The notes under the pieces were generated by a model. The model was not told the DNA's origin. It saw only the letters and a program-made list of their open reading frames with translations, and made no database searches. The translations under genes were made by a program, and so were the position numbers. From Actinospica robiniae DSM 44927 (GTDB lineage Bacteria > Actinomycetota > Actinomycetes > Streptomycetales > Catenulisporaceae): 64,000 nucleotides of DNA. The stretch is taken from contig NZ_KI632511.1 of assembly GCF_000504285.1 (NCBI RefSeq), positions 5,081,372 to 5,145,371 on the forward strand, written 5' to 3'. This document shows positions 25,109-40,754 of this stretch, in pieces. Positions within the stretch are counted from its first letter, which is position 1; each line of letters opens with the position of its first letter.

Positions 25109-26545
25109 TCAGTGACCGACCGACTGCACCGTGTTGTACACCGCCAGCACGCCGAGCAGCACCGGGATGACCGAGGCCAGCAGCAGCGCGTCGAGCATGT
25201 CCACCGTGCGGGCCCAGCGCGGCGAGAGCGAGCGGCCCGGCAGCGCGTAGCCGACCAGCAGCAGGAGCAGGCCGACCGCCAGCACCACGGCGAAGTACCA
25301 GGTCTGCCGGGCCGTGGCCGAGAGCTGCAGGGTCGCGCCGACCAGCAGGATCGTCTCGGTGATCACGCCGCCGCCGATCAGCGCCGTGACCTGGGGGGTG
25401 CGCCGCAGCAGCCGGGCCCGGGAGACGAGCACCAGGCCGAGGATGCCGGCCATGCCCTGCGCCCAGGCGCCGCCGCCGCTGTGCAGCGTGGTGAACGAGA
25501 GCGTCAGCGCGCACACGACCGTCACCAGCGCGCAGGCCGCGACCAGGCCGGTGAGCAGTTCGTGGCCGCGCCGGGTGCGCCGGGCCATGGCCTCGGTGTC
25601 CACCGGGTCGTCGTTGCCGGCCGGCAGGGTCGCGCGCTGCTGCTGCCCGCCCGGGCCCACCTGCGGGGCGCCGTCGATCAGCTGCGGCATCGGGAAGCGC
25701 ACCAGCCGCATGGCCAGGCCCGGCAGGAAGCCGATCGCGGCGACGGCCACGGTGCCGGCCCCGGCCGCGAGCTTGACCGGATCGGCGTGGGTGGCCAGGC
25801 CCACCGCGGCGGTCAGCGCGCCGATGGTGCCGGCGATGCCCGCGGCCAGGTAGACCTCGTCGTGCTCCTCCTGCACCACCCCGCCGATCACCGCGACCAC
25901 CAGCACCGCCGCGCAGGCGACCAGGAAGTGGCTGCGGCCCAGGCCCGCGGTCTGGCTCAGCGACAGCACGCCGAGGCCGGCCAGGAACGCGTAGGGCACC
26001 GCGCAGCCGCCGAGCACCGCGCCGCCGACGTGGTCCTTGTAAGAACGCGAGCACACGCCGCCGGAGACGGTCAGCAGCACGGCCAGGATGGCGGCCACGG
26101 CCGCGGGCATCCCGTGCGGGTCGGCCGAGGTCCACAGCACCCAGGCGCCCACCGCGAGCATCATCGAGCCGCCGATCAGCCCGAGCCGGCGGAAGTGCGG
26201 GGCCGACCACATCCGCTTGTCGTCCGCGACCGAGCGCACGATCGCGTCCACCACGTCGTCGTAGACCGGCGGCGGCAGCGTCTCGGTGGCAGCACGCAGA
26301 TAAAGAAGGTCTCCGTTGCGCACGCCCTGGGCGGAGAGCGACAGGCCCGTGTCGAGCTCGCCGCCGTCCAGCCGGGCCATGGCGAATCCCGAGTGCGCGC
26401 CCTCGTTCTGCCACTGGTCGGCCATCCGCAGGATGTCCGGCAGCAACTCGGCCAGCGGCACATCCTCCGGCAGCGCGACGTCCACCCGCACGTCCGGAGC
26501 CACCACCGTGATACGACAGAACCCTGTCATGACATTGGCAGCCAC
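25109..26545 (-). CDS. eccD: Type VII secretion membrane protein EccD
   Basis: A 478-residue EccD. The N-terminal 90 residues form the ubiquitin-like (YukD) domain ([20 protein letters not shown], then NGDLLYLR), followed by about 11 hydrophobic helices that form the central part of the ESX membrane complex. A GTG at 26545 is preferred because GGGAGG lies nine bases upstream and it gives a short N-terminus as in homologues; an ATG at 26530 is the alternative. It diverges from eccC across a 202-bp control region. The 136 bp between eccD and rpsO hold no clear gene. Confidence 0.94.
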
Positions 26546-26640
26546 TTCCCTGCCCCTCCCGTTTTCGAAACGCTCGCAGCTTGTCGCCGCCGTACGCGAC
26601 CCTCGACCTGCGCCGGGTACGACCATCGGCGCATCCTGAT

Positions 26641-26707: not shown

Positions 26708-26732
26708 CTGCACAGAATCTTGAGTGGGTCAC

Positions 26733-26740
26733 GGGAGGGG
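26733..26740 (+). promoter_or_regulatory. Ribosome binding site fixing a TTG start for eccC
   Basis: GGGAGGGG lies seven bases before the TTG at 26748. An upstream in-frame GTG at 26724 would place this site inside the gene, so the TTG is the better start. Confidence 0.75.
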
Positions 26741-26747
26741 CACGGTT

Positions 26748-29700
26748 TTGAGTACCGTCGTCGTCAAGCGCCCGCCGCGGGTACATCCGCCGCAGGTGCC
26801 ATCGGGAGAGGTGTACCTCGAGCCGCCGCCGGAGCTCGCCCGGGCGGGCAAGGGCGGCGCGGCGCTGATGCAGGCGCTGCCGATGCTGGGGATGCTCGGC
26901 TCGGTCGGCTTCTTCTTCATGCCCGGCAGCAACATCATGATGAAGATGATGGGCGGCATGACCGTCCTGGGCTCGCTGGGCATGCTCACCCAGAGCATGG
27001 GCAAGAAGGGGAACAAGGGCAAGACGGCCGACGCGCGCCGGGACTATCTGCGCTACCTGAGCCAGATGCGCCAGCAGGTGCGCAAGACCCAGCAGCAGCA
27101 GTACACCGCGCAGATGTGGTCGCACCCTGATCCCGCGCACCTGTGGGCGATCGTGACCAGCGGCCAGCGGCTGTGGGAGCGGCGCCCGAACGACCCCGAC
27201 TTCGTCCAGGTGCGCCTCGGCACCGGCTCGCAGCGGCTGGCCACGCCGCTCGTCGCACCGGAGACCGCGCCGGTCGACGAGCTCGAACCCATCTGCGCGG
27301 ACGCGCTGCGCCGCTTCATCACCGTGCAGGGCATGCTGGACAAGCTGCCGATGGCGGTCCCGCTGCGCTCGTTCTGGCACGTGCTGATCAGCTCGGCCGG
27401 CGAGGGCACCCCGGAGGACGCCCGCGGCCATGCCAGGGCCCTGCTGGCGCAGCTGGCCTCCTTCCACGCCCCGGACGAGGTGCGGGTGTGCGTGGTCGCG
27501 GCGGAGAACCGGCAGCAGTACTGGGAATGGGTCAAGTGGCTGCCGCACGCGCAGCACCCCAAGCAGACCGACGCGGCCGGCTCGGTGCGCCTGGTCTACT
27601 CGGACGCGAGCGAGCTCGAGGAGGCGCTGGGCAGCGAGCTGCTCGACCGTCCGCGCTTCGCCCGCGACAACCACCCGATCCTGGACCAGCCGCACCTGAT
27701 CGTGGTGGTGGACGGGGCCCGCGCCAGCGGCGACTCGATCCTGCTGCACGGCGAGGGCATCCAGGGCGTGACCATCGTCGAGATCGACGCCGAGGGCCAC
27801 GCCGGCCTGGTGCGCGGCGGCGTCCACATGGCCCTGGACGGCGACAAGCTGCGGGTGGAGACCTCCTCCGGCGCCTCGTTCAGCGGGGTGGGCGACCGGC
27901 TCTCGATCGCGCAGGCCGAGGCGCTGGCCCGGCAGCTGGCGCCGCTGCGGGTGGGCGGCGGCGGCGACGGCGACGAGCCGCTGATGAGTGCGCTGGACTT
28001 CACCGACCTGATGGGCATCGGCGACCCGGGCTCGTTCGACACCCGCAAGGGTTGGAAGCGGCTGAGCCCGCAGGACCGGCTGCGCGTGCCGATCGGGATC
28101 GGCGAGAACGGCGAGCCGGTGATCCTGGACATCAAGGAAGCGGCCATGGGCGGCATGGGCCCGCACGGCCTGTGCATCGGGGCCACCGGTTCCGGCAAGT
28201 CCGAGGTGCTCAGGACCCTGGTGCTCGCGCTCGCGGTGACGCACTCCTCGGAGGGCCTCAACTTCGTCCTGTCCGACTTCAAGGGCGGCGCGACCTTCGC
28301 CGGCATGGCGACGATGCCGCACACCGCGGCCGTGATCACCAACATGGCGGACGACCTGACCATGGTCGACCGCATGCGCGACGCCATCGTCGGCGAGATG
28401 AACCGGCGTCAGGAGCTGCTGCGCGACGGCGGCAACTTCAAGAACATCCACGACTACGAGAAGGCCCGTTCGGCCGGGGCGCAGCTGACCCCGATGCCGA
28501 ACCTGCTGATCGTGCTCGACGAGTTCTCCGAGATGCTCACGGCCAAGCCGGACTTCCTCGACCTGTTCATCCAGATCGGCCGGATCGGCCGTTCGCTCGG
28601 CGTGCACCTGCTGCTGGCCTCGCAGCGCCTGGAGGAGGGCAAGCTGCGCGGCCTGGACACCTACCTGTCCTACCGGCTGGGCCTCAAGACCTTCTCCGCG
28701 GCCGAATCGCGGGTCGTGCTCGGCGTGCCGGACGCGTTCAACCTGCCCTCGATCCCCGGTTCCGGCTACCTCAAGACGGTCGGCGCCGAGGGCGGCCAGG
28801 GTCCGGGCACCCGGTTCAAGGCCGCGTACGTCTCCGGGCCCTACCGCCCGCAGACCCGCACCACGGTGGAGCGCAAGCTCGACCACCGCCGCCCGACCCT
28901 GTTCACCGCCGCGTACATCGAGCCGGAGCGGGTCGACCAGCCGGTGGCCGTGGTCAAGTCGCACGACGATGACGACGCGCTGGTCGACACCGTGCTCGAC
29001 GTGCTGGTGCGGCAGATGGAGGGCGAAGGCCTGCCCGCGCACCAGGTATGGCTGCCGCCGCTGGCCGAGCCCCCCACGCTGGACCAGCTGATGCCGGGCA
29101 TCCAGGCCACCGCGGACCGCGGCCTGACCGCCACCGGGTACTCCGGGGCCGGCCGCCTGGTGGTGCCGATCGCCATCGCGGACAAGCCGATCGAGCAGAA
29201 GCGCGAGGTCTACCAGCTCGACCTGTCCGGCGCCGCCGGCCACGCCGTGGTCGTGGGCGGTCCGCGCACCGGAAAGTCCACCCTGGTGCGCACGCTGCTG
29301 ACCGGCCTCGCGCTCGGGCACACCCCGCTGGAGACGCAGTTCTTCTGCCTGGACTTCGGCGGCGGCTCGCTGATGAGCCTGCAGGGCCTGCCGCACATGT
29401 CCGGCATCGGCACCCGGCTCGACGTGGACATCGTGCGCCGGATCGTGAGCGAGGTCGTCGGGATCCTGGACAAGCGGGAGGAGACCTTCCGCGCCAACCA
29501 GATCGACTCCATCGGCACCTTCCGGGCCCGGCGGGCCCGCGGCGAGCTGCCCGGCGAGGCGTTCGGCGACGTGTTCCTGATCGTGGACGGCTGGCAGACG
29601 CTCAAGAGCGAGTTCGAGCAGCTCGAGCAGGACCTGCTCGACATCGCCCAGCGCGGCCTCGGCTTCGGCGTGCACGTGATCATCACCGCCGCGCGCTGGG

Positions 29701-30725
29701 CCGAGATCCGCCCGCAGCTCAAGGACGCCGTCAACACCCGCATCGAGCTGCGCCTCGGTGACCCGATGGAGTCCGACGTGGACCGCAAGGTGGCGCAGAA
29801 CGTGCCGCCCGGCACCCCCGGCCGCGGCATCACCCGGCAGAAGCTGCACTTCCTCGGTGCGCTGCCGCGCATCGACGGGGTCGAAGACGCCACCGACCTC
29901 GCGGACGGGGTGGCCAAGACGGTCGCCGCGATCGCGGAGGCCTGGCAGGGCCCGATGGCCCCCAAGCTGCGCATGCTCCCGCTCATGGTGCCCTACACGG
30001 ACCTGCCCGAGCCCTCGGCCCGTCCGGCGTTCGCGATCCCGCTCGGCGTGGACGAGAACAAGCTCGAGCCGGTCTACCTGGACTTCAGCCAGGACCCGCA
30101 CTTCCTGATGTTCGGCGAGGGCGAGTCGGGCAAGACCGCGGTGCTGCGCACGCTCATCAAGGGCATCACCGAGATGTACACCGGCAGCCAGGCCCGCATC
30201 CTGCTGGTCGACTACCGGCGCTCGCTGCTCGGCGCGGTGCCCGAGAGCCACCAGCTCGGCTACTGCGCCGCGAGCGGGGCCGTCTCCTCCACCGTCGCCG
30301 AGATCAAGCCGTTCCTGGACAAGCGCCAGCCCGGCCCGGACGTCACCGCCGAGCAGCTGCGCAACCGCAGCTGGTGGACGGGTCCGGAGATCTTCGTGAT
30401 CGTGGACGACTACGACCTGGTGGCCACCCCCGGCGGCAACCCGCTCTCCCCCTTCGGCGAGTACCTGCCGATGGCCCGGGACCTGGGCTTCCACCTGATC
30501 GTGGCGCGGGCCGCGGGCGGTGCCAGCCGGGCCCTGTTCGAGCCGGTCATCCAGCGCCTGCGCGAGTCGCGCCAGCCCGGCCTGGTCCTGTCCGGCGACC
30601 GGGACGAGGGCCAGCTGATCGGCTCGGTCCGGGCCAGCCAGCAGCCTCCGGGCCGCGGCACCCTGGTCAGCCGGCGGCACGGCAGCCTGCTGGTGCAGAC
30701 GGCCTTCACCCCGCCGACGCTGTAG
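26748..30725 (+). CDS. eccC: Type VII secretion ATPase EccC (FtsK/SpoIIIE type)
   Basis: A 1325-residue motor ATPase of the ESX membrane complex. The N-terminus (STVVVKRPPR, then PSGEVYLEPPPE) and two hydrophobic segments at about 45-90 are typical. Three FtsK-like ATPase domains follow, with Walker A motifs GATGSGKSEVLR near residue 477, GGPRTGKSTLVR near 837 and GEGESGKTAVLR near 1121. Walker B in the first is LLIVLDEFSEML; the later two are VFLIVDGWQTL and IFVIVDDYDLV, where the acidic pair is weaker. The domains are fused in one chain, as in Streptomyces, not split into Ca and Cb as in mycobacterial ESX-1. The gene ends at a strong terminator. Substrates would dock on the third ATPase domain. 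Confidence 0.97.
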   Translation: MSTVVVKRPPRVHPPQVPSGEVYLEPPPELARAGKGGAALMQALPMLGMLGSVGFFFMPGSNIMMKMMGGMTVLGSLGMLTQSMGKKGNKGKTADARRDYLRYLSQMRQQVRKTQQQQYTAQMWSHPDPAHLWAIVTSGQRLWERRPNDPDFVQVRLGTGSQRLATPLVAPETAPVDELEPICADALRRFITVQGMLDKLPMAVPLRSFWHVLISSAGEGTPEDARGHARALLAQLASFHAPDEVRVCVVAAENRQQYWEWVKWLPHAQHPKQTDAAGSVRLVYSDASELEEALGSELLDRPRFARDNHPILDQPHLIVVVDGARASGDSILLHGEGIQGVTIVEIDAEGHAGLVRGGVHMALDGDKLRVETSSGASFSGVGDRLSIAQAEALARQLAPLRVGGGGDGDEPLMSALDFTDLMGIGDPGSFDTRKGWKRLSPQDRLRVPIGIGENGEPVILDIKEAAMGGMGPHGLCIGATGSGKSEVLRTLVLALAVTHSSEGLNFVLSDFKGGATFAGMATMPHTAAVITNMADDLTMVDRMRDAIVGEMNRRQELLRDGGNFKNIHDYEKARSAGAQLTPMPNLLIVLDEFSEMLTAKPDFLDLFIQIGRIGRSLGVHLLLASQRLEEGKLRGLDTYLSYRLGLKTFSAAESRVVLGVPDAFNLPSIPGSGYLKTVGAEGGQGPGTRFKAAYVSGPYRPQTRTTVERKLDHRRPTLFTAAYIEPERVDQPVAVVKSHDDDDALVDTVLDVLVRQMEGEGLPAHQVWLPPLAEPPTLDQLMPGIQATADRGLTATGYSGAGRLVVPIAIADKPIEQKREVYQLDLSGAAGHAVVVGGPRTGKSTLVRTLLTGLALGHTPLETQFFCLDFGGGSLMSLQGLPHMSGIGTRLDVDIVRRIVSEVVGILDKREETFRANQIDSIGTFRARRARGELPGEAFGDVFLIVDGWQTLKSEFEQLEQDLLDIAQRGLGFGVHVIITAARWAEIRPQLKDAVNTRIELRLGDPMESDVDRKVAQNVPPGTPGRGITRQKLHFLGALPRIDGVEDATDLADGVAKTVAAIAEAWQGPMAPKLRMLPLMVPYTDLPEPSARPAFAIPLGVDENKLEPVYLDFSQDPHFLMFGEGESGKTAVLRTLIKGITEMYTGSQARILLVDYRRSLLGAVPESHQLGYCAASGAVSSTVAEIKPFLDKRQPGPDVTAEQLRNRSWWTGPEIFVIVDDYDLVATPGGNPLSPFGEYLPMARDLGFHLIVARAAGGASRALFEPVIQRLRESRQPGLVLSGDRDEGQLIGSVRASQQPPGRGTLVSRRHGSLLVQTAFTPPTL

Positions 30726-30894: not shown

Positions 30895-32286
30895 TCAGTA
30901 CTCTGCTGCGCGGCGCCGACGGGCGGTGTCCCGCGCCACGGCCGCACCGCCGAGCGTCACCGCGGCCACCATGAGGCCGACGATCAGCGCGATGTAGGCC
31001 CAGCGCTGCTGGCTCTGCGCCGTCTTGTCCGTGACCGCGGCCACGTACGGCTTCGCCACGATCCGGTCGGCGGCCGAACCCGCGCTGGAGGCCGAGCCGT
31101 CCTTGTTCGGCCCCGCGCCGTACATCTTCACCGGCAGGCCGTAGATCGGACCGAACGAGCCCGGCGCGCTCCCGGAGACCAGGGCCTTGTCCTCCTTGGT
31201 CGCCGAGCTCGACACCTTCACCTTCGTCAGGGCGTACGAGATCTGCGCCTCGCCCCAGCCCGCGGACAGGCTGTAGGAACCCTCGCCGTCGGCGGTGGCC
31301 TCGATGATCTTCATGACCTCGTAGGCGCGCGCGGGGACCCGGTCGGACGCATGCGTCCAGTCGTACTCCTCGATGATCAGCGCCGCCTCGGCCGCGACGT
31401 ACGGCGCGGCGAAGCTGGTGCCGTCGTCCACCACCAGCTTGCCGTTCGGCAGCAGCGCCTCGACCGCCACGCCGGGCGCCACCACGCCGACGAAGGGGTT
31501 CGCGCTCGTGCCCTTCTCCGAGAAGGTCGGCACCGAGTCGTACTGGTCGACCGCGCCGACCGCGAGCACATAGGGCTGATACGACGCCGGGTAGGTCGGC
31601 GGATTGACGCCGTAGTCCTTGTTGTTGTTGTCGGTCGTGTCCCGGTCGCCCTGGTTGCCCGCCGACGTCACCACGATCACGCCGTGCTGGTAGGCGTTCA
31701 TCACGGCCGCGCGGAGCGTGTCGTCCGGGTCGTAGCCGTCCTGGGAGATGTTGATGACGTCGGCGCCCTTCTCGACCGCCTCGTTGATCGCCGTCGCCAT
31801 CGCGTCCTCGGTGTTGCCCGCCGTCGCCTGGCAGCCGGCCTCACGCATCGAGATCAGCTGCACGCCCGGCGCGATCCCGATCATCCCGCCCTCGCCGTCG
31901 CTCCCCGGCGACTTCGCGCCGATGATCGAGGCGACCATCGTGCCGTGCCCGTCGTCGTCCGCTGCGTCGCCCGTCTTGGTCTCGCCGTTGAGCACCGCCC
32001 CGCCGCTGACCACGAGCTGCTTGCCGGCCGCTATCCCGGTGTCCACCACCGCGACCTTCACCCCCTGGCCGGTCAACGGCTCGCCGGCCCAGTCCGTCAG
32101 CGCGCCGGCCGCCGAGATCTCCCAGGGCGTCTGCTGGCTGGTCGCGGCGGTGACGTTGTTCTGCGTGCAGTTGGAGGCATCCGCGAGCACGGTGCCGCCC
32201 GCGGCCGCGGTCGGAGCGGCGAAGCCGGTGCCCAGAGCCAACGCGGTGGACGCGGCCGCGGCGCCCACCTTCTTCAGGGTGCTCAC
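30895..32286 (-). CDS. mycP: Mycosin, ESX-associated subtilisin-like protease
   Basis: A 463-residue membrane-anchored serine protease of the S8 family. It has a signal peptide (STLKKVGAAAASTALALGTG), the catalytic aspartate in VAVVDTG near residue 82, histidine in DDGHGTMVA near 114, serine in GTSFAAP near 290, and a C-terminal membrane helix (YIALIVGLMVAAVTLGG) followed by basic residues. Mycosins stabilise the ESX complex and cut some substrates on the outer face. The GTG at 32286 is chosen because it begins the signal peptide directly; it lies 10 bp after eccB, so the two are cotranscribed. Confidence 0.95.
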   Translation of the reverse strand: MSTLKKVGAAAASTALALGTGFAAPTAAAGGTVLADASNCTQNNVTAATSQQTPWEISAAGALTDWAGEPLTGQGVKVAVVDTGIAAGKQLVVSGGAVLNGETKTGDAADDDGHGTMVASIIGAKSPGSDGEGGMIGIAPGVQLISMREAGCQATAGNTEDAMATAINEAVEKGADVINISQDGYDPDDTLRAAVMNAYQHGVIVVTSAGNQGDRDTTDNNNKDYGVNPPTYPASYQPYVLAVGAVDQYDSVPTFSEKGTSANPFVGVVAPGVAVEALLPNGKLVVDDGTSFAAPYVAAEAALIIEEYDWTHASDRVPARAYEVMKIIEATADGEGSYSLSAGWGEAQISYALTKVKVSSSATKEDKALVSGSAPGSFGPIYGLPVKMYGAGPNKDGSASSAGSAADRIVAKPYVAAVTDKTAQSQQRWAYIALIVGLMVAAVTLGGAAVARDTARRRRAAEY

Positions 32287-32296
32287 GGTCGACCGC

Positions 32297-33874
32297 CTAC
32301 TGCCCGTTGCCGGGCGTCGTGCCCGCGGCGGTCGGATCCAGAGGCGCGCCACCCTGCATCAGGTTCACCCATACCTCCGGCAGCTGTTCATCGGCGACCT
32401 CTCCGTATCCCAGCAGGGTCTTGGCCGACTGGTCCGTCTGCGTCGAGGACGGGGACGAGGACGAGGACGAGGTGGACGCGGCCTTCACGTCGACCAGCTC
32501 GTAGCGGTAGTCGGAGTCCTCGATCAGGAACTCCTTGCCGCCGCTGTTGAAGTCGCCGGTGAGCCGCCGGGCGACCAGGCCGTAGCCCGGGCGCACGACC
32601 ACGTTGTTGGCCTCGTTGTTGTTGCCCACCTGGTTCAAGCCGAACTGGCCGCCCGGCGAGCCGTAGGGCAGGGACTGGTAGAGCCAGGTGGTCAGCTGCG
32701 GCACCTTGCCGCCGCCGTCGTACGCGCCGTCGTAGCCCACGCAGAGATTCTGGCTGGTCGCCAGTTTGGCGTCAGAGTCCAGACTCGGCTCGATCGTCGG
32801 CCAGTCGGCGCCGAGCGTGTTCGAAGCCAGCAGGTCGCTCGCCTTCGGAGCGCCGTGGGCGTTCGCGCCCTCGATCGCGATCGCGGTGAGCTTGTTCGAG
32901 TCGATGTTCGCGACGTGGCCGCTCAGCGCGGAGTTGGTCGCGTAGAGGTAGTACTCGAACGGAGTGAGCTCGAGCAGGCCGTCAGCGGTCTGCACGGAGC
33001 CACCGCCGCCGGCGTAGTTGAGGCCGTAGTCGCCCACGTGCTGGCCGATCTGACCCGCGCCCGTCACGGGGTCGCCGACACCGCTGAGCAACGCCGGAGC
33101 GGTGATCTGCGCACCCGAGGTGAACACGCTCAACCACGCGTCCGACACCCAGAACCCGTCGCCCGCGGTCCAGTACTGGTCGGACTGCAGACCGGACAGC
33201 AGGTTCGCGACGTTCTGCGCGTCATCGGTGTAGTTGCCGACCTCGTACTTGTAGTCGCCGTCGATCAGGTACACGTCGTCCTGCGAGTCGTGCACGATGA
33301 TGCCCTCGTGGCTGGTCGCGTTCCACACCGCCGTCTGCGCGCTCGGCCCGTAGCCGATCTGCAGATAGGTCGAACCGCCCGGGAGCGACTCGTTGTTCGG
33401 ATCCTTCTCGTTCTGGCACAGCGACCACTGGGTCAGGTTCATGTTGGACGCGCTCGGCACGTCCTCCGGAGCGCCGAGAATGCCGACCGGCGAGCCGATG
33501 GTGATACCGGAGTTGTTGATGGTCGAATCCGGCACGTCGTACTTGGCGAAGTTCGAACCCAGAATCAGCCGCGCCGAGGTGATGTTGTAAACCGAGTGCA
33601 GCTGATTGTTCGACTTCGTATAGATGTACGCGGCGCCGGTGGACTCGTCCACGGCCAGGCCGTTCTGCCACCCGGAGGGCGCGGCCGGCTTGAAGACGCC
33701 GATGACCGCGACCGCGGCGACCGCGATGGCGCTCAGGATGATCGAGGTGGCGAAGGTCTTGACCGGCCGCGGAGCCCCCTCGTCGCTGCCGGTGGCGGTC
33801 GGCACCACCAGGTTCGCCACCATCCGCCGGCGGGCGAAGTTGAACGCGTCGAGCTGGTCCTTGCGAGTCGCCAC
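32297..33874 (-). CDS. eccB: Type VII secretion protein EccB
   Basis: A 525-residue EccB with the conserved N-terminus TRKDQLDAFNFARRRM, one membrane helix (ATSIILSAIAVAAVAVIGVF) near residue 50, and a large extracytoplasmic domain containing WQNGLAVDESTGAAY, LCVGYDG and PGYGLVARRL. EccB forms the periplasm-facing cap of the ESX complex. It ends in a Ser/Gly/Pro-rich tail. The GTG at 33874 has AAGGGG upstream and matches the family start; the ATG at 33898 would add eight residues. It heads the eccB-mycP pair and diverges from eccE. Confidence 0.96.
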   Translation of the reverse strand: MATRKDQLDAFNFARRRMVANLVVPTATGSDEGAPRPVKTFATSIILSAIAVAAVAVIGVFKPAAPSGWQNGLAVDESTGAAYIYTKSNNQLHSVYNITSARLILGSNFAKYDVPDSTINNSGITIGSPVGILGAPEDVPSASNMNLTQWSLCQNEKDPNNESLPGGSTYLQIGYGPSAQTAVWNATSHEGIIVHDSQDDVYLIDGDYKYEVGNYTDDAQNVANLLSGLQSDQYWTAGDGFWVSDAWLSVFTSGAQITAPALLSGVGDPVTGAGQIGQHVGDYGLNYAGGGGSVQTADGLLELTPFEYYLYATNSALSGHVANIDSNKLTAIAIEGANAHGAPKASDLLASNTLGADWPTIEPSLDSDAKLATSQNLCVGYDGAYDGGGKVPQLTTWLYQSLPYGSPGGQFGLNQVGNNNEANNVVVRPGYGLVARRLTGDFNSGGKEFLIEDSDYRYELVDVKAASTSSSSSSPSSTQTDQSAKTLLGYGEVADEQLPEVWVNLMQGGAPLDPTAAGTTPGNGQ

Positions 33875-34080
33875 GGTCTGCCCCTTTTCCCCTCTCATCC
33901 CCGATACCCGAGGGCACGGAGCATGCGTGCGAAACAGAGTACAGTAACGGCGGCGCGGACGGACGGGCGCGCTGACGGGCGACGAGGTGCGGCGCGGCTA
34001 TCGTCGAACCCGGATCTGCACGTACGATACGGGCTGCAGACCAAGGCAAACGCGCTCATACGAGGGGGCAGGCGCACCTG

Positions 34081-35358
34081 ATGGCGACAGCAGCAGCACG
34101 CAACGACGCCCGCGGGTCCGGCCGGCCGGCGACGGAGGCGGGAGCAGGCGGGCGCGGGCTCGCCGAAGTGTCGGCCGACCCCGGATTCCAGCCGCGGCCC
34201 GGGCGGATCGGCTCGCTGCCGCTGGTGCGGCTGATCCTGCTGGAGGCCGCCGCCGCGCTCGCCGCGACGCCGATCCTGGTGCACAAGCCGATGGTGTTCG
34301 CGGGCACCGGCCCGGCCGCGCTGCTGTGCGTGGTCGCCGCGATCGGCGGCAGCAGAGGCCGCTGGCTCGGCGCGAGCCGGCTCGTGCACGCGGATTACAA
34401 GGAGCGTCAGGAGCAGCGCCGGCCGGCCTCCGGGGAGTCCGCGCTCGCGCCGCTGCGGGAGACGTTCCCGGCGCTGCGTACCGCGACCGTGGCCACCCGC
34501 GGCGGCGAGCCCGTCGGCGTGATCGGCGACGGGACGTTCCTGACCGCCGTGATCCAGCTCGACTCGCGCGGCGAACCGCTGCGGGAACAGCGCCAGGCGC
34601 ACCCGCTGCCGGTCGGCGCCGTCGCCGCGGCCCTCTCGGACGCGCAGGTCCCGGTGGCGAGCGTGCAGCTGATCACGCACTCGCGCCCGGCCCCCGCCCC
34701 GCACCTGCCGCGCCAGTCCCTGTCCGCGCGCTCGTACCAGAGCATCGGCGCCACCGTCCCCGCGCAGCGCACCACCTGGGCGGCCGTGCGGCTCGACCCG
34801 GAGCAGGCGCAGGGAGCCGTCGAGGCCCGCGGCGGCGGCACGGTCGGCGCGCAGCGCGCGCTGCTGACAGCCGTTCAGCGGGTGGCCAGCCAGATCGAGG
34901 GCGCCGGCTTCGAGGCGACGATCCTGAGCGAGCCGGAGCTGATCTCCGCGCTGGGCACCGCCTGCAACGTCACGCAGGTGGCGGTGAACCCGACCGCGGC
35001 CGCGCACAAGCGGACCGAGGAGACGCGCCGTTACTGGCGCTGCGACGGCAGCTGGCACACGACGTACTGGCTGGACAAGCCGCCGACGTTCACCGACCGT
35101 ACGAGCCCTGACTTCTTCGCCACGGTGGGCGCGCTGCCGTCACTGGCCACCAGCGTCGCGGTGAATCTGACCAAGGGCACCGGGGACTCGGTCGCGTTCA
35201 GCTGCTTCATCCGGATCGCGGCGGGCTCGGAGCAGCAGCTCACCGAGTCGGGCAAGGTGCTCGAGCAGCAGGCCGGCAAGGCCGGCGCCGGGCTCACCCG
35301 CCTCGACGGCGAGCAGCTGCCCGGCCTGGTGGCCACGGTCCCGCTCGGAGGGGAATAA
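34081..35358 (+). CDS. eccE: Type VII secretion protein EccE
   Basis: A 425-residue protein in the EccE position. Two hydrophobic segments at about residues 55-100 (LILLEAAAALAATPILVH and GPAALLCVVAAIGG) are followed by a soluble domain. Homology of EccE is weak in general, and the call rests on the topology, on CNVTQVAVNPTA and YWRCDGSWHTTYW segments, and on the locus. EccE sits on the rim of the ESX membrane complex. It is followed after 3 bp by the next gene, so the two are translated from one mRNA. Confidence 0.85.
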   Translation: MATAAARNDARGSGRPATEAGAGGRGLAEVSADPGFQPRPGRIGSLPLVRLILLEAAAALAATPILVHKPMVFAGTGPAALLCVVAAIGGSRGRWLGASRLVHADYKERQEQRRPASGESALAPLRETFPALRTATVATRGGEPVGVIGDGTFLTAVIQLDSRGEPLREQRQAHPLPVGAVAAALSDAQVPVASVQLITHSRPAPAPHLPRQSLSARSYQSIGATVPAQRTTWAAVRLDPEQAQGAVEARGGGTVGAQRALLTAVQRVASQIEGAGFEATILSEPELISALGTACNVTQVAVNPTAAAHKRTEETRRYWRCDGSWHTTYWLDKPPTFTDRTSPDFFATVGALPSLATSVAVNLTKGTGDSVAFSCFIRIAAGSEQQLTESGKVLEQQAGKAGAGLTRLDGEQLPGLVATVPLGGE

Positions 35359-35361
35359 GGA

Positions 35362-36168
35362 ATGTCGTCGAACGGATCGTCAGCCGCGTACGCCCCCAGG
35401 AGGGCGAAGCGCGGCGCCGCGCAGGCAGAGCAGCGGACAGTGGTGGCGGCGCGCCCGGAGCGCGGCCACGAGGTGCACCTGATCCCGGCCCGCGGCCCCA
35501 AGCTGGAGAAGCACCTGCTGGAGGCCGGCCAGCTCGACGCGCTCGCCCTCCCGGTGGGAGACGACGGCGTCGTCATCGGCACGGACCAGGCCAGCCGCCC
35601 CGCGGTGATCAGCCTGTTCAAGCCGAGGGCGGTGGACGCGGCCCTGGTCGGCGGCGCGTACATGGCGCAGCTGATCGCCCTGCGCGCCACCGCGACCGGC
35701 GCCCGCGTCGTGGTCGAGACCGCGCGCCCCCAGCTGTGGGCCCCGCTGGCCCAGAACGCCGGCGGCGGCCAGCAGGTGATCGCCGTGGTCCCCGTGCGCA
35801 GAGTCGGAAACCTCGGCGCCACCCCCGCATCCCCCGTGCTGCTGCTGCGCGACTGCGGCGCCCGCCCCCCGCGCAGCGCCGCCCCGAAGACCCCGTGGAT
35901 GACGACACTGACCCTGTTGCCGTTCCTCGACCCCACCTTCGCCGGCCACCTGATCAGCTCGGACTACGTGGCGATGCAGCAGATCTCCCCCCAGGAAGCG
36001 GAACTGGCGGCCCGTCTGTTCCGCCTCAGCGCCCAAGACGTCGCCGCGCTCCCCACCCTGCTCCCCGAGCTGGCCCTGTGGACCGCCCGGCACGGCCGGC
36101 AGTACGTCTACACCGCCCCGACCCACGACGAGTCGGCACTGCTCGGCGCGCCGAGGAGGATGGACTAG
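35362..36168 (+). CDS. Unknown ESX-locus protein coupled to eccE
   Basis: A 268-residue protein that I do not recognise as a named family. It has a basic, Ala-rich N-terminus (1-35), no membrane helix, and a compact alpha/beta-looking region from about 40 to 220 with GAYMAQLIALRATATGARV and TTLTLLPFLDPTFAGHLISS. The C-terminus has helices rich in Leu and Ala. A start 3 bp after the eccE stop, sharing GGAGGGG and AAGGA as ribosome sites, shows it belongs to the ESX operon. It might be a cytosolic chaperone or a complex subunit. The position is compatible with the eccE-linked unknown genes of Streptomyces ESX loci (recalled, not checked). Confidence 0.75.
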   Translation: MSSNGSSAAYAPRRAKRGAAQAEQRTVVAARPERGHEVHLIPARGPKLEKHLLEAGQLDALALPVGDDGVVIGTDQASRPAVISLFKPRAVDAALVGGAYMAQLIALRATATGARVVVETARPQLWAPLAQNAGGGQQVIAVVPVRRVGNLGATPASPVLLLRDCGARPPRSAAPKTPWMTTLTLLPFLDPTFAGHLISSDYVAMQQISPQEAELAARLFRLSAQDVAALPTLLPELALWTARHGRQYVYTAPTHDESALLGAPRRMD

Positions 36169-36698
36169 CGCGGGATAGTCGGCGGCCGTCGGGCTTCGGC
36201 CGGCGGCAGTCGGTCGGCGGCAGTCGGTCGGCGGCTGCGAAAGCACGAGCACGAAGAGCAAGAACGAAGCACGAAGATTGACAACCGTCAGCGCAGTACG
36301 GGACCGCGGACGGGGTATGAGCCCGAATCGAACGGCGAGAACCAGCGCGGTGCGATCGGGTGGAAGTCGGCAAGTCAGCACGGGGACGACGACACGCACA
36401 GTCTCGGCAACGAGAGCAGTCGCACGGGCGTCAGAGGCGGCCAGGCCCGGGTTCGAGCGGAGCCCGGGTGAACGTCCGTCGACTCGATCACTCGCCCACT
36501 GAGCGACCGGTCGACGGCCAGGCGACGGCGGATCGGCGTCGAACGGGAGACCGACGGGTAACCGGCAAGAACCGAGTGAGGACATTGTTTTCAATCGGGG
36601 CCCGAGCCTGGTTACTGTAGGCATCAGGGTTGGCGCGCAGAGCGTGGCGGCAAGGACGAGGCGGCGCAGCGGTAGCAGCACAGAAAGTTGGAAGCGGC
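36169..36698. other. Gap upstream of the EspI-like gene
   Basis: This 530-bp stretch shows no gene with a family signature; in particular no frame carries a WxG motif in a roughly 100-residue helical protein. Near its start GGCGGCAGTCGGTC repeats twice in tandem with a partial third copy (about 36198-36236). TTGTTTTCAATCGG at about 36586 and GTTACTGTAGG at about 36610 are the only AT-richer segments and may hold the promoter of the next gene. Confidence 0.5.
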
Positions 36699-39600
36699 GT
36701 GAGCGGCGAGCACGGGTACGCAGACGGGCCGGAGGAAGACAGCTGGACCGGCCCGGTCTACACGACCCCGGAGTGGTACCGCCTGGGCAACACGGGGACG
36801 CCGGCGGCCCCGCCGGCGCAGCCGCCTGCCCAGCCGGGCGCGCCGGGACAGGGATCGGGGCAGGGTCCGGACCAGAGACTGGGGCAGTCGCCAGGCCAGG
36901 GACCCGGACAGGGGCAGGTTCCAGGGCAAGGAGCGCTGGGCCAGGGGCAGGTTCCAGGGCAAGGAGCGCTGGGCCAGGGGCAGCTGCCGGGCCCCGGTGC
37001 GCCGGGCCCGCTGCCAGGTCAGGGCCCTGGGCAAGGACAGCTTCCGGGCCAGGGAGCGCCCGGTCCGTTGCCGGGCCAGGCATACGTACCCGGCCAAGGA
37101 CGCGCGCCGGACCAGTCCGGCCCCGGCGGACTCGGCTCCAGTGGTCCAAACTCCAGTAGTCTGCCCGGCCGCGGCCCCAGCGCCCAGCCGCCCTACGGTC
37201 AGAGCCCTGCCGGCCCGCCCGGAATCGGCCAAGGCCCCGCACAAGGGCAATCCCCATACGGCCCCGGACCTGGCGGACAGCCAGGGATCGGTCAGAGTCC
37301 TGCGCCAGGACAGCCGCCGTACGGACAAGGACAAGGACCGGGCCAAGGCCAGTCGCCGTACGGACAAGGTCCCGCACAAGGACAGCCACCGTTCGGCCAG
37401 GGACCGACCCCGGGTCAGTCCCCTTACGGCCAGGGCCCCGCTCAGGGTCAACCGCCGTACGGTCAGCAGGGACCGGCTCAAGGCCAGTCGCCGTACGGTC
37501 CCCGACCTGGCGCACAGCCGGGAATCGGCCAAGGCCCAGGCCCCGCGCAAGGCCAGCCCCCATACGGTCCGGGACAGTCCGGCCAGCCGGGACAGGGACC
37601 GAGCGGACAACCGTTCGGCGCACCTGGCGCAGGCGGACAGCCGGGACAGGTTCCCGGGCAGCCTTTTGGAGCACCCGGCGCAGGCGGACAGCCGGGACAA
37701 GTTCCCGGACAGCCCTTTGGAGCACCCGGCGCAGGCGGCCAGGCGGGAACGCCCGGCCAGCCCGGCGCGCAGGGTCAACCGGGTGCCCAGGGCCAACCGG
37801 GCGCACCGGGTCAACCGGGTGCGCCGGGCCAGCCCTGGCAGCGACCCGGCGGTCAGCCGCTCGGACAGCCTGGGCAAGGGCCCGGTGCGCAGCCTGGCCA
37901 AGGCCCTGGCGCACAGCCGCCTTTCGGGGCACCTGCCGCGCAGCAGCCCTTTGCGGCAGGAGCACCTGGCGCTGCCGGACAACCGGGGCAACCAGGACAG
38001 CCGGGGCAGCCGGGACGGCCAGGCCAGCCGCAGATTCCCCCGCCGCCGCCCGCGCCGTTCGGAGCCAAGCCGTTCCCGTCGCCGGCGTCACCGTCCCCGG
38101 TGCCACCGCCCGCGGCGTCGGCGTCCCCTGCGTCCCCGGCTTCGATGCCCCCTGCGTCACCATCGCCGTCTCCGGTGACGGGGCCGACGGCGGGCCAACC
38201 GTCGTCAGCACCGCCGCCTACGAACGCGCCTGTGCAACTGCCGCCGCCCGGCGGGACGCCGGTGTTCCCGCCGCCGCCTGCGCCGCCCGCATCATTCGCG
38301 TCGCCGACATCGCCGACATCGCCGGCGTCGGGGGCTGCGCCTGGGACGGCGGGCGCGCCCAGTCCGGGCGTCGCCGTGCCTCCGCCTCCGCCGCCGCCCG
38401 TGTTTCCGGGCAGCGGCTTTCCGGGCAGCGGCGCGGGGACGGATGGCGGGGCTGCAGCTGGTCCGGCGGGGTCGGTAGCGCCGACTCAGCAGAGCCCTGC
38501 CATTCCGCCGCCGCCACCTTCGCCGTTCGGCACACCGACGTCGGCGTCGTCGACTGGGCAGGGCGCTTCGCTGTCGAGTTCTGGGTCGTCGTCTTCTTCT
38601 GCCGGCAGTACCTCCTCTGGTTCGGATGATTCCTCGGCGCCTAAGGCGTCTGCTGTCGGTGAGGCGGGCGCCTCGGGAACGGGCAGTACAGGGTCGGGCA
38701 GTGCAGGGTCGGGTACGGCTGGAGCCACAGGCTCCGCGGGCTCCGAGGGCTCTGATGAGAAGTCAGAGGCTCCGGCACCGCGGCATGGTGCTCCGGGGGA
38801 GGCAGGCGGCGAGGCTTCGGACACCGCCGCGGCTGCGGCCACGGCACTGCCGGGGTCGGGTGCCGCGCCCGGTCCTTCCGCCGCGCCGGCGCTTACGTCC
38901 GGCTCTGCGAGCGCGGCCGAGCCGCGGTCGGGCGAGATCGCACTCGCACGGCAGAACGAGCTCGCCGTGAATCCGCCGGCGCCGGGGGTGTGGCAGGCTG
39001 CTGCCGCGCCTTCGCCTGCGGCGCCGGGGCAGGCTCCTGCGCCTACCTCGCGTCCCGACCAGGCGATGGCGCACGGACAGTCGCCTTCACCCTCTATGCC
39101 CGCGGCTTCCTCAGCCGGGCCCTCTTCGCCGTCGCCTTCTTCGTCGTCGGCTGCTCCTCTTTCACCCACCTCGCCTTCGTCACTCACGCCACCACTGGCA
39201 CCTCCCGGACCTCCCGCACTTCCCGCACTTCCCGCACTTCCCGCACTTCCCGCACTTCCCGCACTTCCCGTCCCTGCTCCGATCAACGTTCCGCCGCAGC
39301 ACGGAGTTCCCGCTCAGTCACCTTTCAGTGACAGGCCGCAACCGGAGCTTCCGGCGGGATCGCAGCAGCCTGGCGTACCGCCGCAGCAGGGGGTGGCGCC
39401 AGGGACGGTCGTGATTCAGCCTTCTGCGCTCGGGCTCTCGGGGCTGCCGCAGCCTTATCAGCAGGGACAGCCACAGCCGGGATATCCGCCGCAGCAGCCC
39501 GGGCAGCCGTATCCGGGGGCGCAGCAGCCTCAGCCGGGCCAGCCGTACCCAGGACCGGGGCAGCCCTATCCGGGGCCGGGACAGGCGCAGCAGGACCAGG

Positions 39601-40754
39601 CGGGACAGATCCTCTACGGGCCGCAGTCGCAAGGCCAGCAGCCGTTGCAGTACGGGCAGCCGGGACAGCCTGGCCAGCCCGGACCGTCGGGGCAGTCTGG
39701 TGGGTGGGCGGCTCAGCCCGGCTATCCGGGCGCGCCCAACATCCCGGGCTTTCCGCAGCAGGGTTACGAGCAGGGCTACGGCTCCGGCCTCAGCACGCCG
39801 CTCGGGTTCCAGGCGTCGCAGGAGCTCAGCTCGGAGCGGCTCGTCCGCAAGGCCGAACCCGTTGCCAAGACGGGGTGGCGGCGCACGGTGCGCTCGGCGA
39901 GCGGGGGGCTGATCAAGCCGGGGCCCGGCAAGATCGAGGCCTACCGCAACGAGCTGCTCGAGCGGGTGCGCAGCCCGCTGGTCGGGTGCTACCGGATCGC
40001 GGTCATCTCGCTCAAGGGCGGCGTGGGGAAGACGACCACCACCACGGCGCTCGGGGCGACGCTCGCGTGGAACCGCGGGGACCGTGTCATCGCCGTCGAC
40101 GCCAACCCGGACGCGGGAACGCTCGGTCGGCGTGTGCGGCGGGAGACCGGGGCGACGATCCGCGACATGCTGCAGGCGTTGCCGTCCATCCGCAGCTATG
40201 TCGACATGCGCCGGTTCACCTCACAGGCGCCGAGCCGGCTGGAGATCCTCGCCAACGACGTCGACCCGGCCGTCTCGACCACGTTCAACGACGAGGACTA
40301 CCGGCGGATCATCGAGGCGCTGCAGAATCAGTACTCGATTATCCTCACCGACTCCGGCACCGGGCTGCTCTACTCCGCCATGCGCGGGGTGCTGACGATG
40401 GCCGACCAGCTGATCGTGGTCTCCACGCCCAGCGTGGACGGCGGCAACTCGGCGTCGACGACGCTGGACTGGCTTGTCGCGCACGGTTTCGAGGACCTCG
40501 TGCGCCGCTCGATCACCGTCATCTCGGCGGTCCGGCCGTCGTCCAAGGAGATCGACCTGTCCCAGCTCATCGCGCACTTCGCGGCGCGGTGCCGCGCGGT
40601 GGTGCCGATTCCCTACGACTCGCACCTGTCCACGGGCGCGGAGATCGACCTCGAATACCTCAGGCCTGCTACTGCGGACGCCTACCTGGAACTGGCCGCG
40701 CATGTCGCGGAGGGATTCGTCTCGCCGCGTGGGATGAGGCCGTACCAGGGCTAG
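36699..40754 (+). CDS. EspI-like protein: Gly/Pro/Gln repeat region plus ParA/MinD ATPase
   Basis: A 1351-residue protein. After a short acidic start ([20 protein letters not shown]) come about 1,050 low-complexity residues: PGQG and GQG(P/S)YGQ repeats (about 40-330), collagen-like G-x-y runs such as [16 protein letters not shown] (about 345-450), a Pro/Ser/Ala/Thr part (450-880) and further [10 protein letters not shown] repeats (900-1020). From about 1050 a ParA/MinD domain follows with a deviant Walker [14 protein letters not shown] near 1105, [16 protein letters not shown] and [10 protein letters not shown]. This is the layout of mycobacterial EspI (Pro/Ala-rich N-terminus, MinD-like C-terminus), which downregulates ESX-1 at low ATP (known). 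The GTG at 36699 follows GGAAG by four bases; a TTG at 36630 is possible. Confidence 0.88.
36909..36984 (+). repeat. 33-bp direct repeat, two copies plus part of a third
   Basis: The unit beginning CAGGGGCAGGTTCCAGGGCA occurs identically at 36909-36941 and 36942-36974, followed by a partial copy. It encodes [11 protein letters not shown]. Identity at the DNA level points to recent tandem duplication. Confidence 0.9.
37617..37740 (+). repeat. 51-bp direct repeats, two and a half copies
   Basis: The unit encodes [17 protein letters not shown] and occurs at about 37617-37667 and 37668-37718 with a third partial copy to about 37740. Copies differ at only a few positions. Confidence 0.85.
39211..39272 (+). 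repeat. 9-bp tandem repeat CTTCCCGCA, about seven copies
   Basis: CTTCCCGCA is repeated head to tail and encodes Ala-Leu-Pro triplets within the disordered part of the EspI-like protein. The unit length keeps the reading frame, so copy-number change would alter length, not cause truncation. Confidence 0.92.

What the first reader, a model, noticed from the sequence alone, without database searches (positions are those of the whole stretch)
36699..40754. Giant collagen-like, PGQG-rich EspI homologue in a non-mycobacterial ESX locus
About 1,050 residues of Gly/Pro/Gln repeats, including collagen-like G-x-y runs and several tandem DNA repeats (33, 51 and 9 bp), precede a ParA/MinD domain. Mycobacterial EspI has a shorter Pro/Ala-rich N-terminus. 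A long flexible or condensate-forming arm on an ATPase that controls secretion would be unusual, and the near-identical DNA repeats mean its length probably varies between strains.
Basis: partly seen in the sequence, partly recalled or inferred. Interest (0 to 1): 0.6.

Follow-up and report, generated by a model that had tools for sequence, protein, structure and literature searches.

The report
Long-armed ATPase of secretion locus
A soil bacterium's type VII secretion locus carries a MinD-like ATPase with a roughly 1,000-residue floppy arm tipped by a short conserved motif; related Streptomyces have the same layout, and two keep it even after losing the secretion genes beside it, so the arm is an extreme case of a family trait and not a one-off.

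Summary
The frame is real: GTG 36699 to stop 40754 (1351 aa), 1018 aa of low-complexity sequence before a MinD/ParA-type ATPase, in an ESX locus (EccB, C, D, E, subtilase). The arm is translated: a conserved N-terminal motif fixes the start, and internal repeats are all in frame with third-position changes in excess. Corrections: about half the arm is Gly/Pro/Gln-rich; collagen-like triplets cover 96 of 1018 residues; and long arms are the rule in this order. Complete Streptomyces genes with the tip motif (TGEF-IDY--P-WY) have arms of 380-994 aa; the same-genus G002 has polyproline-rich arm pieces. Ends are conserved, the middle is free. 'EspI homologue' is a lead, not a proven membership: the closest mycobacterial relatives are not ESX-linked and the tree is undecided. 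Decisive for function: two of 45 Streptomyces genomes lack the ESX block and any EccC over the cut-off, yet keep the ATPase with full arm and tip motif. So it is probably a tethered MinD-type switch whose client is not only ESX. The neighbour 35362-36168 is predicted to be a VirB4/FtsK-like pseudo-ATPase. Strain-level length variation and condensate formation were not testable.

The parts
36699..40754 (+). EspI-like MinD/ParA-type ATPase gene with long N-terminal arm, 1351 aa, GTG start
   Evidence: open frame; Pfam AAA_31/CbiA; start supported by conserved V-S-G-E-x-G in G002 and G004
36744..36779 (+). conserved tip motif [12 protein letters not shown] (residues 16-27)
   Evidence: identical in G002, similar in G004; TGEFTIDYxPPAWY in 39 Streptomyces, six of 14 positions (T, G, F, P, W, Y) invariant; absent by the same pattern from the 40 wider homologues
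36780..39833 (+). low-complexity arm, residues 28-1045 (1018 aa): 24% Pro, 21% Gly, 14% Ala, 13% Gln, 10% Ser, 4% charged
37719..37835 (+). longest collagen-like stretch, 13 G-x-y triplets (residues 341-379)
36909..36983 (+). 33-bp tandem array, 2.3 copies, 100% match
37604..37748 (+). 51-bp tandem array, 2.8 copies, 88% match
39198..39270 (+). 9-bp tandem array (Ala-Leu-Pro), 8.1 copies, 95% match
39834..40751 (+). ATPase region, residues 1046-1351
   Evidence: Pfam; AF2 model of 39777-40751, mean pLDDT 69.8; VIA Z 14.3 to MinD 1g3q
39873..39920 (+). [16 protein letters not shown], the G-W-R element before the ATPase
   Evidence: G[WF][RQ] there in 32 of 40 non-Streptomycetales homologues, in 1 of 39 Streptomyces (a GFR); pLDDT under 50 in the model
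40014..40034 (+). deviant Walker A KGGVGKT
   Evidence: translation, alignment A1
35362..36168 (+). conserved neighbour, 268 aa, predicted VirB4/HerA/FtsK-class pseudo-ATPase
   Evidence: no family hit at E 1e-3; with EccE and EccB in 39 of 45 Streptomyces loci; VIA Z 18.7 to VirB4; no P-loop lysine in 22 of 22 rows
34081..35358 (+). EccE
   Evidence: PF11203 4.2e-27, TIGR03923 7.5e-46
32297..33898 (-). EccB
   Evidence: PF05108 1.3e-53
30895..32352 (-). subtilase, MycP by context
   Evidence: PF00082 8.8e-37
26724..30725 (+). EccC (EccCa and EccCb fused)
   Evidence: TIGR03924 2.4e-284, TIGR03925 3.9e-260
25109..26626 (-). EccD
   Evidence: PF19053 1.2e-83, YukD 1.8e-21

Best explanation
A three-part device: a short conserved docking peptide at the N-terminus, a long flexible low-complexity tether, and a MinD/ParA-type ATPase. 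Shown: the three parts exist, and across the order the ends are conserved while the middle diverges in sequence, composition and length. Also shown: the gene usually sits in the ESX locus but is kept, complete, in two Streptomyces genomes that lack the ESX block. Inferred: the tip peptide holds the protein at a membrane or polar partner that is not only the ESX machine; the slack arm lets the ATPase dimer reach and release a second site as its nucleotide state changes; ESX is one client, modulated rather than driven. The Gly/Pro/Gln flavour of the window's arm is a lineage-specific repeat expansion of a linker whose exact sequence matters little.
For: Tip motif at the end of the arm in the window plus 39 Streptomyces, in G002 and G004 on separate contigs and in 62 of 66 uncut named loci. 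No arm under 380 aa among the 40. In close pairs with 98.6, 95.2 and 94.2% ATPase identity the arms are 74, 51 and 70% identical. G002 arm pieces are polyproline-rich. Not ESX-bound: in G018 and G033 the gene follows ribosomal S15 with no EccE, EccB or 268-aa neighbour in the stretch read, and these two are the only ones of 45 Streptomyces genomes without an EccC over the cut-off, yet arms are 830 and 718 aa with intact tips; their ATPases differ from each other with dN 0.026 and dS 0.46. Conversely, 10 genomes of genus g2 and G015 have EccC but no close copy of the ATPase. Fold and KGGVGKT.
Against: Partner, ATPase activity and any phenotype are untested. The losses in G018 and G033 may be too recent for the ATPase to have decayed; most of the dN/dS signal may predate them. 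In 39 of 45 Streptomyces loci the gene does sit with EccE, EccB and the 268-aa gene. The tip motif is order-level only: 0 of 40 wider homologues match it, and a looser P-x-W tip is no commoner than in shuffled arms (18 of 40 against 14.9). Charge-hydropathy does not call this arm clearly disordered (FoldIndex +0.028; 46 of 97 windows below zero); disorder is inferred from Pro+Gly content, and the model with pLDDT under 50 covers only the last 19 arm residues. Closed frames without the motif: 2 and 4; a second copy in G045 (L050) has at most 232 residues before its match.
Confidence: 0.4

Rival explanations
1. Dedicated ESX regulator, as EspI is for ESX-1: the tip docks on EccE, EccC or the neighbouring pseudo-ATPase, and the ATPase damps secretion when ATP is low. 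The copies in G018 and G033 are recent orphans.
For: Gene beside EccE, EccB and the 268-aa gene in 39 of 45 Streptomyces loci and in the window; ESX-linked relatives in G102, G230, G123, G181, G299. EspI is reported to lower ESX-1 secretion at low ATP (passages of PMC6979476, and PMC11302016).
Against: Complete genes kept without the ESX block in G018 and G033; nearest wider relatives not ESX-linked; homologues in genomes with no EccC hit at E 1e-40 (G134, G225; 8 of the 46 genomes).
Confidence: 0.25
2. Condensate arm: the arm's job is self-association, clustering the ATPase into droplets or polar foci; the window's arm, nearly uncharged and rich in P-G, would be an extreme case.
For: PG dipeptides 8.0 per 100 residues against 0.4-6.9 in 39 Streptomyces arms; 4% charged against 7-17%; 35 Tyr+Phe.
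Against: Composition is not kept between relatives: Streptomyces arms are more acidic, G002 pieces are polyproline-rich. No predictor of phase separation was run.
Confidence: 0.15
3. Neutral slack: repeats slip and lengthen the linker without use; only the tip and the ATPase matter.
For: Near-perfect in-frame arrays, 20-35 indels between close species, arm replaced within a genus, low GC3 of this arm (0.69 against 0.79-0.92).
Against: 0 of 40 motif-bearing arms are under 380 aa, although many relatives outside the order have upper bounds of only about 90-250.
Confidence: 0.15
4. A collagen-like triple-helical stalk that trimerises the ATPase.
For: One 13-triplet run, above 500 shuffles (max 7).
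Against: Triplet runs cover 96 of 1018 residues; Streptomyces arms have longest runs of 2-7; no Pfam match; MinD/ParA ATPases work as dimers (general knowledge).
Confidence: 0.03
5. The repeat part is untranslated and the gene starts near 39700.
For: GC3 in the arm is low (0.56-0.81 per 300 bp, 0.94 in the ATPase).
Against: Conserved start and tip; repeats only in frame with third-position excess, and no stop in 1019 codons where 0 of 2000 position-wise shuffles stay open.
Confidence: 0.02

Closest known systems
EspI-like genes of Streptomyces ESX loci
   Same: tip motif, long arm, ATPase at 62-70% identity, mostly the same neighbours
   Different: arm richer in Ala and acidic residues, G-W-R element absent in 38 of 39, extra Gln/Pro C-terminal tail in the ones printed
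EspI of mycobacterial ESX-1 (Rv3876 type)
   Same: Pro/Ala-rich N-terminus, G-W-R element, MinD/ParA-type ATPase, gene in an ESX locus (PMC2763215 table passage: 'Pro and Ala rich protein')
   Different: shorter arm (at most 184 and 364 aa in L183 and L185), 35-40% ATPase identity, no tip motif, separate long branch
ESX-unlinked mycobacterial relatives beside ResB (Rv0530-like; that name is recalled)
   Same: closest mycobacterial match, 57-58% ATPase identity in L151-L154; G-W-R element
   Different: arm of at most 93-97 aa in L151-L154, nearest EccC or EccD over 250 kb away in G366, G413, G299, no tip motif
MinD / Soj / FlhG
   Same: fold (Z 13-14) and deviant Walker A
   Different: no long N-terminal arm (recalled); a C-terminal membrane helix was not looked for here

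Membership tests
MinD/ParA (SIMIBI) ATPases | deviant Walker A KGGxGKT | tested here: met
   KGGVGKT at 40014-40034; in A1 only L050 (KGGVSKT) and L082 (KGGTGKT) differ
MinD/ParA (SIMIBI) ATPases | fold | tested here: met
   AF2 model of moderate confidence (pLDDT 69.8); VIA Z 14.3 to MinD, 13.4 to Soj
MinD/ParA (SIMIBI) ATPases | ATP-dependent dimer, partner-stimulated ATPase | not testable with these tools
   needs biochemistry
EspI (ESX-1 secretion-associated) | Pro/Ala-rich N-terminus plus ParA-type domain | tested here: met
EspI (ESX-1 secretion-associated) | encoded in an ESX locus | tested here: met
   EccB, C, D, E and a subtilase within 16 kb; not so in Streptomyces G018 and G033
EspI (ESX-1 secretion-associated) | one clade with ESX-1 EspI | tested here: inconclusive
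   free trees keep them apart; holding them together costs 2.28 log units, AU p 0.167 (31 rows)
EspI (ESX-1 secretion-associated) | lowers secretion when ATP is low | not testable with these tools
   experiment needed
ESX / type VII secretion locus | EccB, EccC, EccD, EccE, mycosin | tested here: met
ESX / type VII secretion locus | WXG100 substrates in the locus | tested here: not met
   13 PF06013 matches in the genome, none inside the window; divergent Esx proteins could escape this profile
collagen-like protein | long uninterrupted G-x-y domain, collagen profile match | tested here: not met
   longest run 13 triplets, 96 of 1018 residues in runs of five or more; no Pfam hit at E 10

The most novel reading that the evidence does not exclude
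Streptomycetales encode a previously undescribed tethered regulator: a conserved tip peptide on a flexible arm of at least 380 residues reels a MinD-type ATPase onto membrane or polar machines, of which the ESX system (perhaps through the adjacent VirB4-like pseudo-ATPase) is only one. Arm length sets the reach and local concentration of the ATPase, while arm sequence drifts freely into Pro/Ala, polyproline or collagen-like forms, and the device outlives the secretion genes it usually travels with.
Probability: 0.22. Interest if true: 0.65.

Novelty: new variant of a known kind. Interest (0 to 1): 0.45.

Why it matters
ESX systems of Streptomyces are suggested to act in development rather than virulence (PMC8401907, section 18 read). 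A protein with two conserved ends and a length-bounded, sequence-free middle is a clean system for testing what a bacterial low-complexity tether does: swap or shorten the arm and measure. Genomes that kept the ATPase without the ESX block make its ESX dependence directly testable. The pairing of an EspI-like gene with EccE in Streptomycetales also bears on the proposal that eccE and espI were added in a plasmid ancestor after ESX-4 (PMC4791881, passages), with the reserve that orthology to EspI is unresolved.

Tried and rejected
Rejected: untranslated repeat; collagen stalk; a family-wide P-x-W tip (18 of 40 against 14.9 expected); strict co-occurrence of the ATPase with ESX (lost in both directions: 10 g2 genomes and G015 have EccC without it; G018 and G033 have it without EccC over the cut-off).

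Recounting showed 39 of 45 loci with EccE, EccB and the 268-aa gene; four of the other six are cut by a contig end, two (L045, L054) lack them. Searches followed that up, and the odds were moved from ESX-only to not-only-ESX.

Led nowhere: same-species arm comparison (G001 contig ends 18 residues before the ATPase); arm DNA search in G001, G002, G004 found the two ends (for G001 only the 3' end) and short matches; sigma-70-type promoter scan, 0 sites; FoldIndex, inconclusive. Literature: SCO5717 (0 papers), EspI with type VII secretion and Streptomyces (28), Streptomyces ESX (14, 19), ParA-type with disorder (2), EspI disorder (20) and (4): in the listings seen, nothing on the arm of the Streptomycetales gene; PMC11302016 treats disordered regions of mycobacterial EspI (passages). 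Subscription papers are mostly not held.

Redone: one search used a wrong frame; one search used too narrow a motif pattern; the tree dropped 18 rows missed by a P-loop pattern and was redone with 52 rows (left out there: L174, L081, L082). The groups of the AU tests were named after the first trees were seen.
Full report
WHAT IS THERE. The frame 36699-40754 (+) is open for 1351 codons. Its last 306 residues are a MinD/ParA-type ATPase (Pfam AAA_31 and CbiA; AF2 model with mean pLDDT 69.8; VIA Z 14.3 to MinD, 13.7 to FlhG, 13.4 to Soj). The 1018 residues before it (28-1045) are low-complexity: 24% Pro, 21% Gly, 14% Ala, 13% Gln, 10% Ser, 4% charged. The flavour changes along the arm: Gly/Pro/Gln at 28-447, Pro/Ser/Ala and Ala/Gly/Ser in the middle, Gln/Gly/Pro/Tyr at 928-1045. 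Collagen-like runs of at least five G-x-y triplets are 13, 8, 5 and 6 triplets long.

IS IT TRANSLATED. Three tests agree. The start and a tip motif are conserved: the window's [12 protein letters not shown] is identical in the same-genus genome G002 and similar in same-family G004, on contigs that also carry the end of the 268-aa neighbour. Repeats inside the arm occur only at lags divisible by three (37 segment pairs against 0 and 0), with mismatches 81/104/255 at codon positions 1/2/3; 20 codon-shuffled arms gave 0.65 pairs on average. No stop occurs in 1019 codons, whereas 0 of 2000 position-wise shuffles stay open.

WHERE. G000 is a 9.92-Mb single-contig genome. G002's contig has the same length (184,565 bases) as the Actinospica acidithermotolerans contig that encodes its match, so the window is most likely an Actinospica. 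The locus holds EccD, EccC, a subtilase, EccB, EccE, a 268-aa protein and the ATPase gene. No WXG100 match lies in the window; 13 lie elsewhere.

RELATIVES IN THE ORDER. The 11 without are ten of genus g2 and G015; all 11 carry EccC over the family cut-off. I fetched all 49 (window). Forty give a complete gene with the tip motif (window plus 39 Streptomyces), seven are cut by a contig end, two are closed frames without the motif. G002 and G004 are among the cut ones but show the motif on another contig. Four second copies in Streptomyces (L049, L050, L081, L082) lack the motif and were not counted; L050 has at most 232 residues before its match. Arm lengths: 380-890 in the 39, mean 610, sd 126; 1018 in the window. 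In 80 named loci (they overlap the first set), 62 have the motif, 14 are cut, four are closed without it, and the arms of the 62 are 387-994 aa, median 618.

THE ARM IS FREE BETWEEN FIXED ENDS. G002's pieces (179 residues from the start, 308 before the ATPase, not joined) are rich in polyproline with little of the window's P-G-Q-G repeats. In Streptomyces pairs with 98.6, 95.2 and 94.2% ATPase identity the arms are 74, 51 and 70% identical; realigned, those pairs show 22, 35 and 29 indels and a fourth, more distant pair 20. Tandem arrays are common in the family: the window has 4 near-perfect arrays, Streptomyces 0-7, and array coverage 0.38 lies within their 0.07-0.45. What sets the window apart is length, P-G density (8.0 per 100 against at most 6.9) and low GC3 (0.69 against 0.79-0.92; G002 pieces 0.86 and 0.91, G004 piece 0.79). 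The low GC3 is unexplained.

NOT BOUND TO ESX. In 39 of 45 Streptomyces loci the gene lies with EccE, EccB and the 268-aa gene; four of the other six are cut at the gene's 5' side; in L045 (G018) and L054 (G033) none of the three is found, and ribosomal S15, which flanks EccD in the window, lies just upstream of the ATPase gene. These two genomes, both 100% complete, are also the only ones of 45 Streptomyces without an EccC over the cut-off (42, three); each has one weaker EccC-like match (253 and 379 bits, cut-off 509). Yet both keep the whole gene, with arms of 830 and 718 aa and intact tips. They are not each other's nearest relatives in an ATPase DNA tree, though support there is weak; dN 0.026 and dS 0.46 between them match ESX-bearing pairs. 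So either two losses or one older loss, and the ATPase stayed intact. Conversely, ten g2 genomes and G015 have ESX without the ATPase.

WIDER FAMILY. In 398 genomes of the phylum 86 match at E 1e-18. I fetched 40 non-Streptomycetales matches, a selection, and all 40 were found again. Upper bounds for their arms run from 93 aa to several hundred or more (some frames are open upstream by chance, for example L159 and L179). Long arms also occur in two ESX-linked genes of genus g8 (642 and 851 aa, L160 and L162). None of the 40 has the tip motif. A G-W-R element before the ATPase is present in 32 of the 40 and in the window, but in 1 of 39 Streptomyces. The 57-58%-identical mycobacterial relatives in G366, G413 and G299 are over 250 kb from EccC and EccD; in G366 the gene lies near ResB, a DsbD-type protein, a histidine phosphatase and a class-III aminotransferase. 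ESX-linked EspI-type genes (L183, L185) form a separate long branch. Tests: window clade plus those two, AU p 0.167; plus L160 and L162, p 0.002; plus the ESX-unlinked mycobacterial group with L150, p 0.036. So 'EspI' is a lead and an unproven membership.

THE NEIGHBOUR. The 268-aa gene has no Pfam or NCBIfam match at E 1e-3. In g2 genomes, which lack the ATPase, a relative was found in 6 of 6 searched, within 10 kb of EccC in four. Its AF2 model (mean pLDDT 77.8; residues 9-53 and 60-66 under 50) matches VirB4 (Z 18.7), HerA (about 15), FtsK (14.4) and EccC (13.7) motor domains. The P-loop is replaced by G[GS][ALV][YW][MTL]AQ, without lysine, in 22 of 22 rows. It is absent from the G018 and G033 loci, so it is not an obligate partner of the ATPase.

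HOW IT PROBABLY WORKS. Docking tip, slack arm, switching ATPase, with a client that is not only ESX. The anatomy, the usual ESX linkage and its loss in two genomes are shown; docking, reach and regulation are inferred, leaning on MinD/ParA biology and on reports that EspI lowers ESX-1 secretion at low ATP (passages of PMC6979476, and PMC11302016; the original paper was not held).

VERDICT. A real gene and a real arm, in a family where long arms tipped with a conserved peptide are the rule. The window is the extreme, glycine-rich case. The layout, its survival without ESX, and the pseudo-ATPase neighbour are the interesting parts.

Noticed in passing
window 35362-36168 (+): Unannotated 268-aa ESX neighbour predicted to have a VirB4/HerA/FtsK fold with the P-loop lysine absent in all 22 aligned members; EccE itself matches weakly (3.4e-4) the C-terminal end of the SCO6880 family model, which may hint at a shared origin.
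   Followed up: partly
L045 and L054: Streptomyces genomes G018 and G033 appear to have lost the whole ESX block between ribosomal S15 and the ATPase gene.
   Followed up: partly
window 36780-39833: GC3 of the arm is 0.69, lower than in all 39 Streptomyces arms (0.79-0.92) and the G002 arm pieces (0.86, 0.91); unexplained.
   Followed up: partly
window 36169-36698: 530-bp gap before the gene with a 14-bp tandem repeat at 36196-36235; in G002 the gap is about 120 bp.
   Followed up: no
L058, L063, L051 and other Streptomyces loci: Streptomyces homologues carry an extra Gln/Pro-rich C-terminal tail after the ATPase that the window lacks.
   Followed up: no
L170, L192 (G245): Two back-to-back divergent pairs of these ATPases in G245, which has no EccD match; one pair lies about 8 kb from an EccC-like gene below the cut-off.
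   Followed up: no
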